Origin: Nitrosococcus wardiae
GTDB taxonomy: Bacteria > Pseudomonadota > Gammaproteobacteria > Nitrosococcales > Nitrosococcaceae
Length of the DNA: 64,000 bases
Assembly: GCF_004421105.1 (NCBI RefSeq)
Contig: NZ_CP038033.1
Location: forward strand, 391,659 to 455,658
Direction: 5' to 3'
Below are positions 26,139 through 59,376 of this stretch, one piece after another (within the stretch, counting starts at the first letter, position 1; the number at the start of each line of letters is the position of its first letter). A program made the translations under genes and the position numbers. The notes below the pieces were generated by a model that saw only the letters and a program-made list of their open reading frames with translations, did no database searches and was not told the DNA's origin.

Positions 26139-26311
26139 CCAGCAACATAGTAGGGGTGCACGCCACAGGGTGTCAACAGAGACTTAAGAGTTTCCTTTAA
26201 GTTTTCTCCGTACAGATTAACAAATCTTTTTAAATCAAAAGATTAAGCAGGAATGCTAGGAAAGAGGCTGAAGCTAGATAACAAACAAATAGGAAAGAAT
26301 GCGAAAGGGTT

Positions 26312-26656
26312 GAGACGACCGATAAGCCGGGTTCTGTCATGGACAGCCATTCATCTAGGATGCACGTTACCGTACATCTCAAGCGGCCTACCCGGGAACG
26401 GTGCGGGCCACACCTTGGTTCCCCTATTTGGCCTTGCTCCGAGTGGGGTTTACCCTGCCGCGGAATGTTGCCACCCGCGCGGTGCGCTCTTACCGCACCT
26501 TTTCACCCTTACCGGCACCCGCAGGCACTTAGGCGGTATGTTTTCTGCGGCACTTTCCGTAGGCTCACGCCTCCCAGGCGTTACCTGGCACCCTGCCCTG
26601 TGGAGCCCGGACTTTCCTCGCTATCCCAAGAGATAACGCGGCTGTCTAGTCGTCTC
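26312..26656 (-). ncRNA. rnpB: RNase P RNA (class A)
   Basis: Catalytic RNA of RNase P, which matures tRNA 5' ends. On the minus strand the 5' end GAGACGACTAGACAGCCGCG is followed by the conserved GAGGAAAGTCCGGGCTCCAC and GGCAGGGTGCCAGGTAACG regions. The 3' end has CAGAACCCGGCTTATCGGTCG. The terminal 8 bases GAGACGAC and GTCGTCTC pair as helix P1, which fixes the ends. About 345 nt. It lies between the cation-efflux gene and the mraZ promoter region, on the same strand as both. No clear intrinsic terminator is visible downstream. Confidence 0.95.
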
Positions 26657-26672
26657 TAATTCATAATTATAC

Positions 26673-27739: not shown

Positions 27740-28897
27740 CTAGGCCACGGCCCTTGGGGTCTTTACCGCTCCACGCGCTTTATCGGTTCCGGCACTCCCC
27801 GCCGTACCAAAATTCAAAACATTGATAGCCGCGTTGATGTCCCTATCGTGGCGGGTAGTGCAATCAGGGCAAACCCACTCGCGAACTTTGAGCGGCATGG
27901 ACTCGTGAATAGTCCCGCACTCAGAGCACGCTTTGCTAGTCGGTGCCCAGCGGTCCACGATCAACACTTCCCGGCCATACCATTGGGCCTTGTACTCCAT
28001 TTGCCGGCGAAGCTCATACAGACCACAATCCGCAACGGCTTTACTCAGGCGACTATTTCTCAACATCCCTTTGATGTTCAAATCCTCCAGGCAAATCACT
28101 GGGTTCTCGTTAATCAGCTTCGAGGATTGCTGGTGCAGAAAATCCCGGCGGCTATCCGCTATCCGGGCATGGATACGCGCCACGCGTTGCTGTTGTTTTC
28201 GGCGACGATTGGACCCTTTCTTCTTTTTGCTCAATCGACGCTGCGCCATCCTCAATTGACGGGCAGAGTGATAGGTGTACTTAGGTGCGCCCGATTTATA
28301 CCCCTCGGAAGTGATGACCACCTCCTTAATCCCCACATCCACGCCAACGGCGTTCTTGCGGGTAGGCAGCGCGGCAATCTCCACCTCGCAGGCCATGCTG
28401 GCGAAATAACGGCCAGCCGGGTCTTTACTGACCGTCACCATTTTGGGGATGCCGCCTATACGCCGGGACCATTTCAGCTTCAGCGCACCAAGTTTGGGCA
28501 GTTTCAACCGCTGGCTTTTGGCGTTGAAATTCTTTTCTACATGGCGTTGGTCCAACTGATAGCGCACCGACTGAGCTTGGTGGCGCGTCTTAAAGCGGGG
28601 ATACTTGGTCCGACCGGCAAAGAAATGCTTAAACGCCGTGTCCTGGTCCCTCAATTTCTGGATATGGCAACCGGCAGTCGCTTCGCTCAGCCACGAACAC
28701 TCCGTCTTTTTAAGTTCCGTCAATTGGCGACTGAGGTTGAGGTTATTCAGCGACTCGCCATGCTCTTTATACGCCTTCGTTCGGGTCTCCAACGCCCAAT
28801 TCCATACAAAGCGGGTATGACCAAATTCAATCGTCAATTGCCGCTTTTGCGTGGGCGTAGGATAAAACCTGAATTTATAGGCGCGTTGTGTTACCAT
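27740..28897 (-). CDS. tnpB: TnpB RNA-guided nuclease (OrfB), copy 1
   Basis: 385-residue TnpB of the IS200/IS605 superfamily; such proteins cut DNA next to a short adjacent motif, using a guide RNA made from the element's own 3' end. The RuvC-like active site is complete: Asp187 (GVDVGIKE), Glu271 (LEDLN), Asp353 (HDRDINAAIN). The zinc finger has Cys324, Cys327, Cys343 and Cys346. The start is the ATG at 28897 (MVTQRAYKFRFYPT, the standard family N-terminus); the longer frame to 29122 crosses the divergent small gene. All catalytic residues are present, so the protein is likely active. Confidence 0.93.
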   Translation of the reverse strand: MVTQRAYKFRFYPTPTQKRQLTIEFGHTRFVWNWALETRTKAYKEHGESLNNLNLSRQLTELKKTECSWLSEATAGCHIQKLRDQDTAFKHFFAGRTKYPRFKTRHQAQSVRYQLDQRHVEKNFNAKSQRLKLPKLGALKLKWSRRIGGIPKMVTVSKDPAGRYFASMACEVEIAALPTRKNAVGVDVGIKEVVITSEGYKSGAPKYTYHSARQLRMAQRRLSKKKKGSNRRRKQQQRVARIHARIADSRRDFLHQQSSKLINENPVICLEDLNIKGMLRNSRLSKAVADCGLYELRRQMEYKAQWYGREVLIVDRWAPTSKACSECGTIHESMPLKVREWVCPDCTTRHDRDINAAINVLNFGTAGSAGTDKARGAVKTPRAVA

Positions 28898-28915
28898 AAC
28901 TGCATAGTAACACAA
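28886..28915. promoter_or_regulatory. 9-bp inverted repeat over the tnpB start, copy 1
   Basis: TTGTGTTAC (28886-28894) and GTAACACAA (28907-28915) form a perfect 9-bp inverted repeat with a 12-bp spacer that contains the tnpB start codon (28895-28897). The repeat ends 16 bp before the divergent ribbon-helix-helix gene. It may be the operator for that protein, controlling both genes, or in RNA it may form a hairpin that hides the tnpB start codon. The same repeat is in copy 2. Confidence 0.6.
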
Positions 28916-28931
28916 ACCACGCGAGGCGACA

Positions 28932-29084
28932 ATGGCGAAAGAAACCGTCAATATGAGAATCGACCCAGAACTAAGGGCCAAGTTAGTAGAAATGGCAAAG
29001 CAACAGAATCGGCCCCTATCCAATCTAATAGAGACGCTTCTTTGGGAAGCCGTGAAACGCGAATTCATGGCGAAACGCAAGTAA
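28932..29084 (+). CDS. Ribbon-helix-helix small protein in TnpB element, copy 1
   Basis: A 50-residue basic protein. The pattern VNMRIDPELRAKLVEMAKQQ, then NRPLSNLIETLLWEAVKREF, is that of a CopG/Arc-type ribbon-helix-helix DNA-binding domain: a beta strand followed by two helices with a turn at NRPLS. ATG at 28932 has GAGG five bases upstream. It is divergent from tnpB with 34 bp between start codons, the spacer being filled by an inverted repeat. An exact copy is in element copy 2 (59120-59272). The likely role is a repressor of the element; this is inference, no toxin partner is visible. Confidence 0.72.
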   Translation: MAKETVNMRIDPELRAKLVEMAKQQNRPLSNLIETLLWEAVKREFMAKRK

Positions 29085-29109
29085 TACAGCCCTCGCGCTC
29101 GATGCGCCG

Positions 29110-29364
29110 CTACGCTTCGCACCCTCGCTGGGAGGTCGTCGCACTTCCTTGTGCTCCTTCAAAGCACAATATTACGAAACAGCATAAAGCAATCAAAGCC
29201 AACCCTGTAGCAATTTCTCGATTAAGGAGCCTACTTTGGAGTTCATAAGTTGCGGCCAAGGTAAGCGACCCTAAAACCAGACTCAAATAGCCAACCCAAA
29301 GAACTACTGGAGAAAATCCCGGCCGCTGCCCCTCCACGCCTATTGATCGCCACGCCGAAATCAC
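29110..29364 (-). pseudogene. Small membrane protein, 3' end replaced by TnpB element
   Basis: A GTG start at 29364 directly follows the rsmI stop (TAAGTG) and has a strong AGGAGG site, so it is translationally coupled to rsmI. The protein has two hydrophobic segments (VVLWVGYLSLVLGSLTLAA and GLALIALCCFVILCF). The native sequence ends at the element border (29164); the last 18 or so residues are encoded by the element, so the original C-terminus is probably lost. Family not recognised. Confidence 0.55.
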
Positions 29365-55299: not shown

Positions 55300-55761
55300 A
55301 TGCTGACATCATCTAACGAAGAGTCCCTCCATCTGCATGAGAATGAATTCAAGAATATCCTTGCCGCCCATCAACAGTGGCTACGATCAGAGGGAAAAGA
55401 AGGTCAACAAGCCCACCTTGATGGGGTTATCCTTCGGGGGGCTAATCTGAAAGGCGTTAATCTCCAGCGAGCCAATCTTACCTTGGCCTGCCTAGAGGGG
55501 GCCAACCTAGAAAATGCTGACCTTCAAGGATGCACCCTCATTCTTGCCAGCCTAAAAGAAGCGAACCTGACCAATGCTAGGCTTCGGGGAGCGGATCTCA
55601 ACAGTTGTAAATTACAGGCGGCTGATCTTCAGGGCGCCGATCTATCCGCTGCCAACCTAGAATGGACCGACTTATCCTATGCGAACCTTTATCAGACCAA
55701 CCTCCGCGGTGCCAACCTAGACAATGCTAATCTCAATAACGCCCTTGGAGTTTCGCCATGA
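55300..55761 (+). pseudogene. Pentapeptide-repeat protein, 3' end cut by TnpB element copy 2
   Basis: From the ATG at 55300 (MLTSSNEESLHLH) a helical N-terminus is followed by about 20 A(N/D)LxX pentapeptide repeats (GANLKGVNLQRANLTLACLEG and on), which form a right-handed beta-helix. The native sequence ends at 55743; the last residues (LGVSP) and the stop come from the element. The protein may still fold, but its natural C-terminus is lost. Role unknown. A TTG at 55264 is an alternative start. Confidence 0.7.
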
Positions 55762-55835
55762 CTGACTGCGGTTCGGTCCCTCCTCACCTTGTCAGCCTGG
55801 AGAATTCGCGTTTCCTCGCGGTCCTTGGGCGGTGG

Positions 55836-56054
55836 CTAGGCCACGGCCCGTGGGGTCTTTACCGCTCCACGCGCTTTATCGGTTCCGGCGCTCCCCGCCG
55901 TACCCAACATCAAAACATTGATGGCTGCATTGATATCCCTATCGTGTTCCGTTCCACAGTCCGGGCATTCCCACTCACGGATTTTGAGCGGCATGGACTC
56001 TTGAATAGTCCCGCACTCAGAGCACGTTTTACTGGTGGGCGCCCATCGGTCCAC
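55836..56054 (-). CDS. tnpB: TnpB copy 2, exon 2 (zinc finger and last catalytic Asp)
   Basis: 72 codons plus stop, beginning VDRWAPTSKTCSECG. It holds both CxxC pairs of the zinc finger and the third catalytic Asp (HDRDINAAIN). Joined to exon 1 it restores a 385-residue TnpB. It differs from the matching part of copy 1 at roughly two dozen of 219 bases by eye (for example CPDCGTEHDRD in place of CPDCTTRHDRD), unlike exon 1, which is nearly identical. Confidence 0.85.
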   Translation of the reverse strand: MDRWAPTSKTCSECGTIQESMPLKIREWECPDCGTEHDRDINAAINVLMLGTAGSAGTDKARGAVKTPRAVA

Positions 56055-56105
56055 ATAGGGTAGGGGGGCTCGCATCCGCGTGGGAATACGGCTCCCCCTC
56101 CCTCC

Positions 56106-56140
56106 GAACCGGACGTGATAGTTTCCCATCATCCGGCTCT
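56106..56140 (-). ncRNA. Group II intron domain V
   Basis: On the minus strand AGAGCCGGATGATGGGAAAC, then TATCACGTCCGGTTC, folds into the domain V hairpin: AGAGCCGGA-type lower stem, bulge, and a GAAA tetraloop. This is the catalytic core of the ribozyme and looks unmutated. It is followed by a GC-rich stem that would be domain VI with the branch site. Confidence 0.85.
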
Positions 56141-56169
56141 CCGAACCTGCGTGTTCCGTGTTGTCCGCT

Positions 56170-57544
56170 GGCTTTGGGCGTGTGTCTGTGCAGGGCAAGT
56201 GTGGCAGAGCACGATGCGTTTCCGCAGTCTGGCCGCCTTTACTTGCTGCCATAGCGGGGTTCCTTGTCGGTCCTTAAGGTGCCGAACGTGGTGGACCTCG
56301 CAGGGCTCGCTGGTGTTACCGCAGCGTTCGCACTGTTGCGCTTTCAGCCGATCAATGACATCAGACCTCGTAGCGGTGAGCTGGAGGGCCCTTGGTGAAG
56401 CGGGGCAACGTCTGTACGTCCTTAATGTTAAAGACTTCCAGTCGCCGCACGGTCCCGTTTACCATTGCTTGGACAACTAATTTTCCCGGTGCGATTCTCA
56501 GTCTATTAGCCTGTTTTTGTACGGACGACTTGTGCTTAATCGCCAAGGTCTTGAGTAAGCTGGTGGTCCCTAACAGGAGCAGTTTTCTCAGTTGGTATTT
56601 AACGAGTGGCGCAAGCTTGTAGCCCCCGCATTTCCGCATTGTAGGCCAGTACCATCTCGAAGTCCGAGCTATCGATCAGGTACTTCCGATGCTTCGCTTT
56701 GAGGGTGTCGAGGTTTCCATATCCGCACCTGTCCGCGAACGTAAACAGTCTGTCCTTCGGGACGTTGAGCCGTACCGCATCGGAGGTGATCCGGCTTTTC
56801 ACTCTCTGCCCGTTCAGATTAACCCTGTGTTCCTTGGTGGCGGTGCCGCTGGTGCGGACTTCGTAGCCAAGAAACCGCGTTCCGTTCGTGGCCTTGCTCA
56901 GTGTGCTTTTCTCCGGCGATGCTTCCAGTTTCAACTCCCGGTCAAGGAATGTCTTGATCCGTTGCATTACCTGTTCAGCATCCGCCTTTGCTCCGATGAT
57001 GCCCACCAGAAAGTCATCGGCATACCGCACATAGTTCAGTCGCCGATAATTGGGGTCCAGTGGGTCACCGTAGGGGAGTTCCGAGCGTTGGCGCTGGAGG
57101 GCTTTGACTTCCTCCACACACCGGCGGGCTTCGTCCGGTTTCCCTTCCTCAGCCAGCTTGTCGGCTTTCTTTCTGAGTTGGTACATTTTCTGACGCAGGG
57201 ACACATAGGGCGGATTCTGCCGCCGTCGGGATTCCCAGCGGTCTGGTTTTCCCGTTGGCTTTCGGGATGTGTACCCGTCTGACAGGATTGAAGACAGACG
57301 TCCCGTTTCGCAACTGTGCAATGATCCGTTCCACCGTGCCCAGTGAAAAACCGTGCAGGGTGTCCTGGATGACGCCCCGAGTTGTTGCCCCCGCATTGGA
57401 GGCAACGTTTTCGTAGGCGCGTTCCCATAGCGGCATTTCGCATAGGAGCCGAAACAGTCCGTTAATCCTTTTCCCCTGTGTGGACAGGTTTGGAATGGCA
57501 TTCATTCGCTTTTCTAGAGTCATGGATAGCATCAGCACGTCCAC
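56170..57544 (-). pseudogene. Degenerate group II intron reverse transcriptase/maturase (IEP)
   Basis: Pieces in three or more frames. 57544 to about 57224: N-terminus and RT0/RT1 (KANGKTRPLGIPT). The next piece resumes at RRQNPPYVSLRQKMYQLRKK, which normally lies after RT4, so RT2-RT4 (probably 400-500 bp) are deleted with a frame change. RT5 with YADD (RLNYVRYADDFLVGI), RT6 and RT7 follow. A second break near 56625 (NAEMRGL / YKLAPLVKYQ) starts the maturase X domain. A third near 56360 begins an HNH domain (CERCGN, CEVHHVRHLKDRQGTPLW), which itself shifts frame near CHTC. No functional protein is expected. Confidence 0.85.
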
Positions 57545-58146
57545 TCCGTTAGTGATTGAATACCGCAGGTTCTGTCACCCTTCACCCGGTTATCGAAGAT
57601 TCCCCGTTCCGTTGCCGGTTCGGTTTCACCCGTCCCCGTCAGCCTTATGGCTGCTGTCCTGGATATTACTCCAGGCGTTTGGCTACTAGGGTGACTCTGT
57701 CGCCATTCGGATTGAGCCAGGCTCATCCGGGCAGGCGATCCCGTGTTTACGCCATTTAGGAGATACGATGAGGTGAGATGCTCCGTTCGTTCCTTTAATC
57801 CTCCCGACGGGAGGCAGGCCGCGTTGGCTGGGCCGGGAAGGTCTGATCGCACCCTTCCCTTCAGCCGCGGTGCAACGCGCCAGACACTGCTACGTTGCCA
57901 CCGAGGATAAAGCCCTGAGAACTGGAGTTCAGGCAGTGTAGCTTTCACCATACTCATCTTGCACTGACCCTCTTAACTTACAGTGACTTCAGTTATTTGG
58001 GCCTTTTCCCGGCATGCTATGGTCCCGTTCCCCTTTCGGGGTTTCAGGGAGGGGTTGCCTCCCACCGGTAAGCCTGGTGTGCAGGGATTTTCCCAGCTAT
58101 CCTAATGCATTGGCATCGCTCCTTAAATTGCGCCACCACGGCGCAC

Positions 58147-59085
58147 GATCAACACTTCCCGGCCATACCATTGGGCCTTGTACTCCATTTGCCGGCGAAG
58201 CTCATACAGACCACAATCCGCAACGGCTTTACTCAGGCGACTATTTCTCAACATCCCTTTGATATTCAAATCCTCCAGGCAAATCACTGGGTTCTCGTTA
58301 ATCAACTTCGAGGATTGCTGGTGCAGAAAATCCCGGCGGCTATCCGCTATCCGGGCATGGATACGCGCCACGCGTTGCTGTTGTTTTCGGCGACGATTGG
58401 ACCCTTTCTTCTTTTTGCTCAATCGACGCTGCGCCATCCTCAATTGACGGGCAGAGTGATAGGTGTACTTAGGTGCGCCCGATTTATACCCCTCGGAAGT
58501 GATGACCACCTCCTTAATCCCCACATCCACGCCAACGGCGTTCTTGCGGGTAGGCAGCGCGGCAATCTCCACCTCGCAGGCCATGCTGGCGAAATAACGG
58601 CCAGCCGGGTCTTTACTGACCGTCACCATTTTGGGGATGCCGCCTATACGCCGGGACCATTTCAGCTTCAGCGCACCAAGTTTGGGCAGTTTCAACCGCT
58701 GGCTTTTGGCGTTGAAATTCTTTTCTACATGGCGTTGGTCCAACTGATAGCGCACCGACTGAGCTTGGTGGCGCGTCTTAAAGCGGGGATACTTGGTCCG
58801 ACCGGCAAAGAAATGCTTAAACGCCGTGTCCTGGTCCCTCAATTTCTGGATATGGCAACCGGCAGTCGCTTCGCTCAGCCACGAACACTCCGTCTTTTTA
58901 AGTTCCGTCAATTGGCGACTGAGGTTGAGGTTATTCAGCGACTCGCCATGCTCTTTATACGCCTTCGTTCGGGTCTCCAACGCCCAATTCCATACAAAGC
59001 GGGTATGACCAAATTCAATCGTCAATTGCCGCTTTTGCGTGGGCGTAGGATAAAACCTGAATTTATAGGCGCGTTGTGTTACCAT
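58147..59085 (-). CDS. tnpB: TnpB copy 2, exon 1
   Basis: 313 codons from the ATG at 59085 (MVTQRAYKFRFYPT) to isoleucine 313, with catalytic Asp187 and Glu271. If the intron is not spliced, translation runs on for seven residues (VRRGGAI) and stops, giving a protein without the zinc finger and without the third catalytic Asp. Only two base differences from copy 1 are seen over this stretch, both silent in tnpB or conservative. Confidence 0.88.
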
Positions 59086-59103
59086 AACTGCATAGTAACA
59101 CAA
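59074..59103. promoter_or_regulatory. 9-bp inverted repeat over the tnpB start, copy 2
   Basis: Same TTGTGTTAC / GTAACACAA pair with a 12-bp spacer as in copy 1, at 59074-59082 and 59095-59103, flanking the tnpB start codon at 59083-59085. Confidence 0.6.
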
Positions 59104-59119
59104 ACCACGCGAGGCGACA

Positions 59120-59272
59120 ATGGCGAAAGAAACCGTCAATATGAGAATCGACCCAGAACTAAGGGCCAAGTTAGTAGAAATGGCAAAGCAACAGAATCGG
59201 CCCCTATCCAATCTAATAGAGACGCTTCTTTGGGAAGCCGTGAAACGCGAATTCATGGCGAAACGCAAGTAA
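59120..59272 (+). CDS. Ribbon-helix-helix small protein in TnpB element, copy 2
   Basis: Identical 50-residue protein to the one at 28932-29084, divergent from tnpB copy 2. Presence of the intact gene in both copies with no base change suggests that it is maintained or that the copies are recent. Confidence 0.72.
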   Translation: MAKETVNMRIDPELRAKLVEMAKQQNRPLSNLIETLLWEAVKREFMAKRK

Positions 59273-59348
59273 TACAGCCCTCGCGCTCGATGCGCCGCTA
59301 CGCTTCGCACCCTCGCTGGGAGGTCGTCGCACTTCCTTGTGCTCCTTC

Positions 59349-59376
59349 AAAGAACCCCGCTGAGGCGGGGTTCTTT
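59349..59376. terminator. Bidirectional intrinsic terminator
   Basis: AAAGAACCCCGC (59349-59360), loop TGAG, GCGGGGTTCTTT (59365-59376): a perfect 12-bp stem with A-rich and T-rich edges on both sides, followed by GTTT. It lies just beyond the element border and probably ended the pentapeptide-repeat transcript before the insertion. It now also ends transcripts of the porin-like gene from the other side. Confidence 0.85.

What the first reader, a model, noticed from the sequence alone, without database searches (positions are those of the whole stretch)
56055..58146. Group II intron splits tnpB exactly between codons; splicing would restore a full-length nuclease
The intron ends (GTGCGCC...CCTAT) fall so that the flanks rejoin as GATC/GTGGACC, the sequence of intact copy 1. 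Exon 1 has 313 codons and exon 2 has 73 with the stop; together 386, the same number as copy 1. The insertion is between codons 313 and 314, between catalytic Glu271 and the zinc finger. Intron retention would give a 320-residue protein without the zinc finger or third catalytic Asp. So nuclease activity of this copy would depend on ribozyme splicing: a mobile element within a mobile element that need not inactivate its host.
Basis: partly seen in the sequence, partly recalled or inferred. Interest (0 to 1): 0.82.

Follow-up and report, generated by a model that had tools for sequence, protein, structure and literature searches.

The report
Maturase-less group II intron inside tnpB
A real self-splicing-type RNA intron sits exactly inside one copy of an RNA-guided nuclease gene (tnpB); its RNA part still looks intact, but the protein it needs to splice and move is broken and no replacement was found in the genome, so whether the gene is ever restored is open, and introns nested in transposon genes are already known.

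Summary
A 2,092-nt group II intron (58146-56055, minus strand) interrupts tnpB copy 2 in sense orientation between codons 313 and 314. The flanks give a 385-residue TnpB with D187, E271, D353 and both zinc-finger CxxC pairs, colinear with copy 1 (8 substitutions, all in exon 2).

The ribozyme looks sound. Domain V is identical to that of two intact relatives, DVI has a bulged A, EBS1 pairs 6/6 with the exon end, and DI-DIII share a covarying fold with seven intact introns (137 pairs, 80 with two-sided changes).

No second copy and no intact group II maturase was found in the 4.02-Mb genome. So 'nuclease activity depends on splicing' is possible, not shown.

Group II introns in IS transposase genes are known (RmInt1 in ISRm2011-2, <1% exon ligation; E.c.I4 in IS3-type elements). 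tnpB as host gene is the new detail; I found no report of it in the papers searched.

Exon 1 is 99.75% identical to copy 1 but exon 2 only 86%: the copies are mosaics.

The parts
58147..59085 (-). tnpB copy 2, exon 1 (codons 1-313; D187 and E271)
   Evidence: 99.75% identical to copy 1 over exon 1 and the IS left end; catalytic motifs by alignment to ISDra2 TnpB
55836..56054 (-). tnpB copy 2, exon 2 (codons 314-386 with stop; zinc finger CSECG...CPDCG, D353)
   Evidence: open; exon 2 plus right end 85.8% identical to copy 1, 92-93% to copies in a congeneric genome; about 13 synonymous versus 4 nonsynonymous differences from L046
56055..58146 (-). group II intron, 2,092 nt, GTGCG...CCTAT, single copy in the genome
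   Evidence: Rfam hit; colinear with a 2,569-nt intact relative (L034) from first to last base
57552..58146 (-). ribozyme domains I-III (stretch aligned; exact domain borders not drawn)
   Evidence: 137 consensus pairs in 8 introns, 80 with two-sided change, 0/500 shuffles as high; this intron keeps 126/137
57843..57848 (-). EBS1 (GAUCAG, intron 299-304) in the terminal loop of its hairpin
   Evidence: pairs 6/6 with IBS1; aligned loops of five relatives pair 7/7 with their own exons
58147..58152 (-). IBS1 (TTGATC), last six bases of exon 1
57917..57921 (-). candidate EBS2 (UUCUC, intron 226-230), pairing with GGGAA at -14..-10 (58156-58160)
   Evidence: same loop position as UCCUC in L034, which pairs with its exon at -12..-8; not general across relatives, tentative
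57212..57532 (-). IEP pseudogene piece 1: N-terminal RT part, intron frame 2
   Evidence: TIGR04416 positions 5-73
56620..57213 (-). IEP pseudogene piece 2: RT with YADD, intron frame 0; about 137 residues upstream of it are deleted
   Evidence: RVT_1 145-205; TIGR04416 205-296
56364..56621 (-). IEP pseudogene piece 3: maturase (X) region, intron frame 1
   Evidence: tblastn to L034 only; no Pfam match on its own
56132..56362 (-). IEP pseudogene piece 4: HNH endonuclease, intron frame 2, last CH pair altered
   Evidence: PF21368, E 9e-14
56106..56139 (-). domain V, 34 nt
   Evidence: identical to DV of L034 and L036
56055..56105 (-). domain VI with bulged A at 56061 (-7 from the 3' splice site)
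   Evidence: fold z -4.6 for DV plus DVI
27740..28897 (-). tnpB copy 1, uninterrupted
59120..59272 (+). divergent 50-aa ribbon-helix-helix-like ORF inside the IS (present in the family, no tnpA seen)

Best explanation
Copy 2 is an IS200/IS605-type tnpB element invaded by a mobile group II intron of the RT-X-HNH kind. Inferred: the intron arrived by retrohoming or ectopic retrotransposition at a site that its EBS1 could pair with, in sense orientation. Shown: its protein gene has lost the RT core and its frame, and no other copy or intact group II maturase was detected in the genome, while the ribozyme still has the structural parts I could check. Inferred: the intron is now immobile, and any splicing depends on unaided ribozyme activity, so mature mRNA for a full TnpB is probably rare. 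The usual product of copy 2 would be a 320-residue protein without the zinc finger and third catalytic Asp, and copy 1 is the likely source of TnpB.
For: Intron identity and exact ends. EBS1-IBS1. Intact ribozyme fold with compensatory changes specific to this intron, such as 453-572 and 455-570 in the DIII base. DV identical to two intact introns. IEP pieces in three frames with about 137 RT residues missing. Single copy. Other group II RTs in the genome are N-terminally truncated and of another type, and the two full RTs look like retron-type defence proteins by architecture. [quoted passage not shown]
Against: Exon 2 shows no decay (13 synonymous to 4 nonsynonymous differences from L046), which would also fit a spliced, translated gene. 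The ribozyme shows no excess of broken pairs over intact relatives. A plasmid or host factor not in the one-contig assembly could supply a maturase. No RNA data were available.
Confidence: 0.6

Rival explanations
1. The intron splices well enough, unaided or with a helper maturase, and copy 2 yields functional TnpB.
For: Ribozyme parts intact; exon reading frame exactly restored; exon 2 undamaged.
Against: Own maturase destroyed; no intact group II maturase found; candidate EBS2-IBS2 is short and shifted; an IS-resident intron is reported to ligate exons poorly (PMC4238363).
Confidence: 0.2
2. The ribozyme is already dead from changes that comparison does not reveal; copy 2 is a plain tnpB pseudogene with an intron relic.
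For: 30 departures from columns otherwise invariant in DI-DIII; IEP decay; single copy.
Against: Intact-IEP relatives L036 and L040 depart as often (28 and 31); many departures are compensated pairs; DV unchanged.
Confidence: 0.18
3. The apparent splitting is an assembly artefact or chance colinearity.
For: None found.
Against: Unique intron in a single-contig genome with 5' and 3' joins in frame; structure and relatives agree on both ends.
Confidence: 0.02

Closest known systems
RmInt1 in ISRm2011-2 (Sinorhizobium meliloti, IS630 family), PMC4238363 and PMC5894124
   Same: Group II intron inside the transposase gene of an insertion sequence; in-frame stops make splicing necessary for the host protein.
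   Different: RmInt1 has an intact IEP and is mobile, and its host gene is the transposase of an IS630-family element; here the host gene is tnpB, the intron is single-copy and the IEP is dead.
E.c.I4 in IS3-type transposases (IS629, IS911, ISEc16, ISEc31), PMC3522654
   Same: Group II intron sitting at specific positions in IS genes.
   Different: Recently proliferating in E. coli; other IS family.
Intron on Sphingobium sp. YBL2 plasmid NZ_CP010956 (L034) and relatives on sphingomonad and rhizobial plasmids
   Same: Same intron family: 68.6% DNA identity over the aligned parts, same ends, DV identical, RT-X-HNH protein.
   Different: Intact 630-residue IEP; several lie in or beside ArdC-family genes (annotation), not in tnpB.
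IStrons (group I intron plus IS element), PMC4227781
   Same: Self-splicing-type RNA combined with an insertion sequence.
   Different: IStrons are group I introns that carry the IS genes within one mobile unit; here a group II intron lies inside tnpB.

Membership tests
Group II intron | DV-DVI catalytic domain | tested here: met
   RF00029 67.3 bits, gathering 40
Group II intron | 5' GUGYG and 3' AY ends at the exon joins | tested here: met
   GTGCG...CCTAT; relatives share the start and L034 the end
Group II intron | Domains I-III with conserved covarying fold | tested here: met
Group II intron | EBS1-IBS1 pairing | tested here: met
   6/6; 2.3% of hexamers from the window do so
Group II intron | EBS2-IBS2 pairing | tested here: inconclusive
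   5 bp candidate at shifted spacing; not general across relatives
Group II intron | Bulged A in DVI | tested here: met
   predicted bulge at -7
Group II intron | Splicing activity | not testable with these tools
   no RNA data
Mobile (autonomous) group II intron | Intact RT/maturase ORF in DIV | tested here: not met
   pieces in three frames, about 137 RT residues missing
IS200/IS605 TnpB RNA-guided nuclease (copy 2, spliced form) | RuvC D-E-D triad and zinc finger | tested here: met
   D187, E271, D353; CSECG and CPDCG; copy 1 scores 341.8 bits to NF040570, cutoff 100
IStron | Group I intron ribozyme forming part of an IS-borne mobile unit | tested here: not met
   only a group II match in this region at Rfam gathering scores

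The most novel reading that the evidence does not exclude
A maturase-less group II intron acts as a lasting splice switch on an RNA-guided nuclease: exon 2 and the right end, where TnpB guide RNA normally originates, remain intact whether or not the intron is removed, so the element could supply guide RNA constantly while making its own nuclease only when the ribozyme splices.
Probability: 0.1. Interest if true: 0.55.

Novelty: new member of a known kind. Interest (0 to 1): 0.32.

Why it matters
If copy 2 is spliced, an RNA-guided nuclease of the Cas12-ancestor family would be under ribozyme control by a group II intron, a parallel to the group I IStrons, and a natural maturase-independent bacterial group II intron could be studied. 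If not, it is a clear snapshot of an intron whose protein decayed before its ribozyme, inside a mobile element that is still homogenised with its sister copy.

Tried and rejected
Search for close intron relatives in GTDB contigs (one 31% hit), viral contigs (none), 63 genomes of the order and 369 of the class: no relative above the thresholds used except the window itself. The phylum search with the IEP alignment at E <= 1e-150 was probably too strict: nothing rang, so it shows nothing. The PF01348 search of the genome is also uninformative because it rang nowhere, controls included; absence of a maturase therefore rests on the RVT_1 and GIIM searches, both of which ring in control genomes. 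A test of decay in exons versus IEP was dropped: exon 1 was homogenised with copy 1, leaving 219 nt, too few for power. In one search the row 'c1' was read one base out of frame and is disregarded; the other rows are in frame. The idea that the mosaic breakpoint marks intron-driven co-conversion was considered; the breakpoint also matches the inner end of a deletion derivative (L065), so it is not claimed. The intron's structural subclass was not determined.

Full report
What is there. The minus strand from 59085 carries tnpB copy 2: exon 1 of 313 codons (59085-58147), a 2,092-nt insertion (58146-56055) and exon 2 of 73 codons with stop (56054-55836). The insertion begins GTGCG and ends CCTAT, and Rfam finds the group II DV-DVI domain at 56141-56055, ending on the last base of the insertion. 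The joined flanks align without gaps to copy 1 (27740-28897) and differ by 8 residues, all in exon 2. Alignment of copy 1 to ISDra2 TnpB places the RuvC acids at D187, E271 and D353 (numbering; the identity of the catalytic residues of ISDra2 TnpB is from my own knowledge); the first two are in exon 1, the third and the zinc finger in exon 2. Retention gives 320 residues.

The intron and its relatives. The closest full-length relative found is on a Sphingobium plasmid (L034, 1501-4069): it aligns from the first to the last base, is 2,569 nt long and encodes a 630-residue RT-maturase-HNH protein. Six more relatives with full-length proteins come from sphingomonad and rhizobial plasmids; several sit in or next to ArdC-family genes. 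No relative of the window's RT fragment was found in 63 genomes of the order at E <= 1e-20 nor in 369 of the class at E <= 1e-40.

Ribozyme. An alignment of the first 595 bases with seven relatives gives a consensus of 137 pairs, 80 of them with changes on both sides in at least one sequence; 95.9% of cells pair, against 81% in shuffles and 36-43% when partners are slid. The structure was derived from these sequences, so the percentage paired is biased upward; the two-sided changes are the stronger part. This intron keeps 126 of 137 pairs, as many as L034, and departs from otherwise invariant columns 30 times, against 28 and 31 in L036 and L040, whose proteins are intact. Many of its private changes are compensated, for example U453-A572 and A455-U570 in the helix at the base of domain III, where all seven relatives have C-G and G-C. 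Domain V is identical to that of L034 and L036, and DVI folds with a bulged A seven bases from the 3' end. EBS1, defined by an aligned loop that pairs 7/7 with the exon in five relatives, pairs 6/6 with TTGATC before the insertion; 2.3% of hexamers drawn from the window would do this. EBS2 is only a candidate.

Protein. The ORF is broken. Relative to L034, residues of about 119-255 are gone, including the first catalytic Asp of the RT and the PQGG motif, and the frame changes there; further small deletions shift the frame at about residues 458-460 and 544-550; the last CH of the HNH is altered. The pieces lie in frames 2, 0, 1 and 2. The intron is single-copy. The genome (4,022,640 bases, one contig) has five RVT_1 matches: this one, two N-terminally truncated group II proteins of another type, and two full RTs fused to a TIR-like and a protease-like region, read as retron-type defence proteins from their architecture. 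No intact group II maturase was detected. A helper on a missing plasmid cannot be excluded.

Function. Splicing has not been shown. [quoted passage not shown] I therefore think that copy 2 makes little full-length TnpB, but the ribozyme could be alive. Exon 2 is intact and differs from the L046 copy of a congeneric genome by about 13 synonymous and 4 nonsynonymous changes. That fits either a recent insertion or continued use; the data cannot tell these apart.

Mosaic. Exon 1 and the left end are 99.75% identical to copy 1, whereas exon 2 and the right end are 85.8% identical to copy 1 but 92-93% to copies in a congeneric genome. Copy 1's right part is 95.7% identical to another copy, L014, and 100% for roughly 170 nt starting 24 nt before the intron site. 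The switch therefore lies between -24 and +8 of the intron. Gene conversion between sister elements that stopped at the 2-kb heterology is one explanation; a right arm copied from a deletion derivative whose inner end is also at -24 (L065) is another. I do not choose between them.

Organism. The genomes of the genus and family have sizes expected for Nitrosococcus and its relatives, and a one-contig 4.02-Mb genome would fit N. wardiae; this is inference and my own knowledge, not a database identification.

Known or new. Group II introns nested in IS transposase genes are established (RmInt1 in ISRm2011-2; E.c.I4 in IS3-type elements), and RmInt1 has been proposed to limit its host's spread by poor splicing. 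Three literature searches for group II introns with tnpB, IS605, IS1341 or IStrons gave no case inside tnpB, but only open-licence papers are held. It is a new member of a known kind, with an unusual host gene.

Noticed in passing
window 27740-29122 and 55740-59360; L014: tnpB copies are mosaics: copy 1 matches copy 2 at 99.75% up to the intron site and L014 at 100% for about 170 nt from 24 nt before it; switch window -24..+8.
   Followed up: partly
L002 1324-2445 (G000:C1 around 3610234-3611355): One 374-codon open frame joins a TnpB N-terminal HTH fragment (PF12323) to a truncated group II RT plus maturase domain: a second tnpB/group II contact in the same genome.
   Followed up: partly
G000:C1:3364945-3365755 (L003, L010) and G000:C1:1583961-1584032 (L011): Other group II remnants: a truncated RT with maturase domain and DV, and a DV-like match just under the Rfam threshold.
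   Followed up: partly
window 59120-59272 and homologues in L012, L014, L041-L043, L045, L049, L052: A divergent 50-aa ribbon-helix-helix-like ORF lies inside the IS upstream of tnpB and is conserved in the family; weak Pfam RHH_5 match below cutoff. No tnpA seen in the element.
   Followed up: partly
L065, L063, L062: MITE-like deletion derivatives lack most of tnpB; their right arms begin near -24 to -42 of the intron site.
   Followed up: partly
L004 1228-2829 and L005 613-2286 (G000:C1:1160553, 3368665): Two full RTs fused to TIR-like and trypsin-like regions, probably retron-type defence genes (by eye, not scanned).
   Followed up: no
window 26307-26657: Bacterial class A RNase P RNA, 345 bits, a short way from tnpB copy 1.
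   Followed up: no
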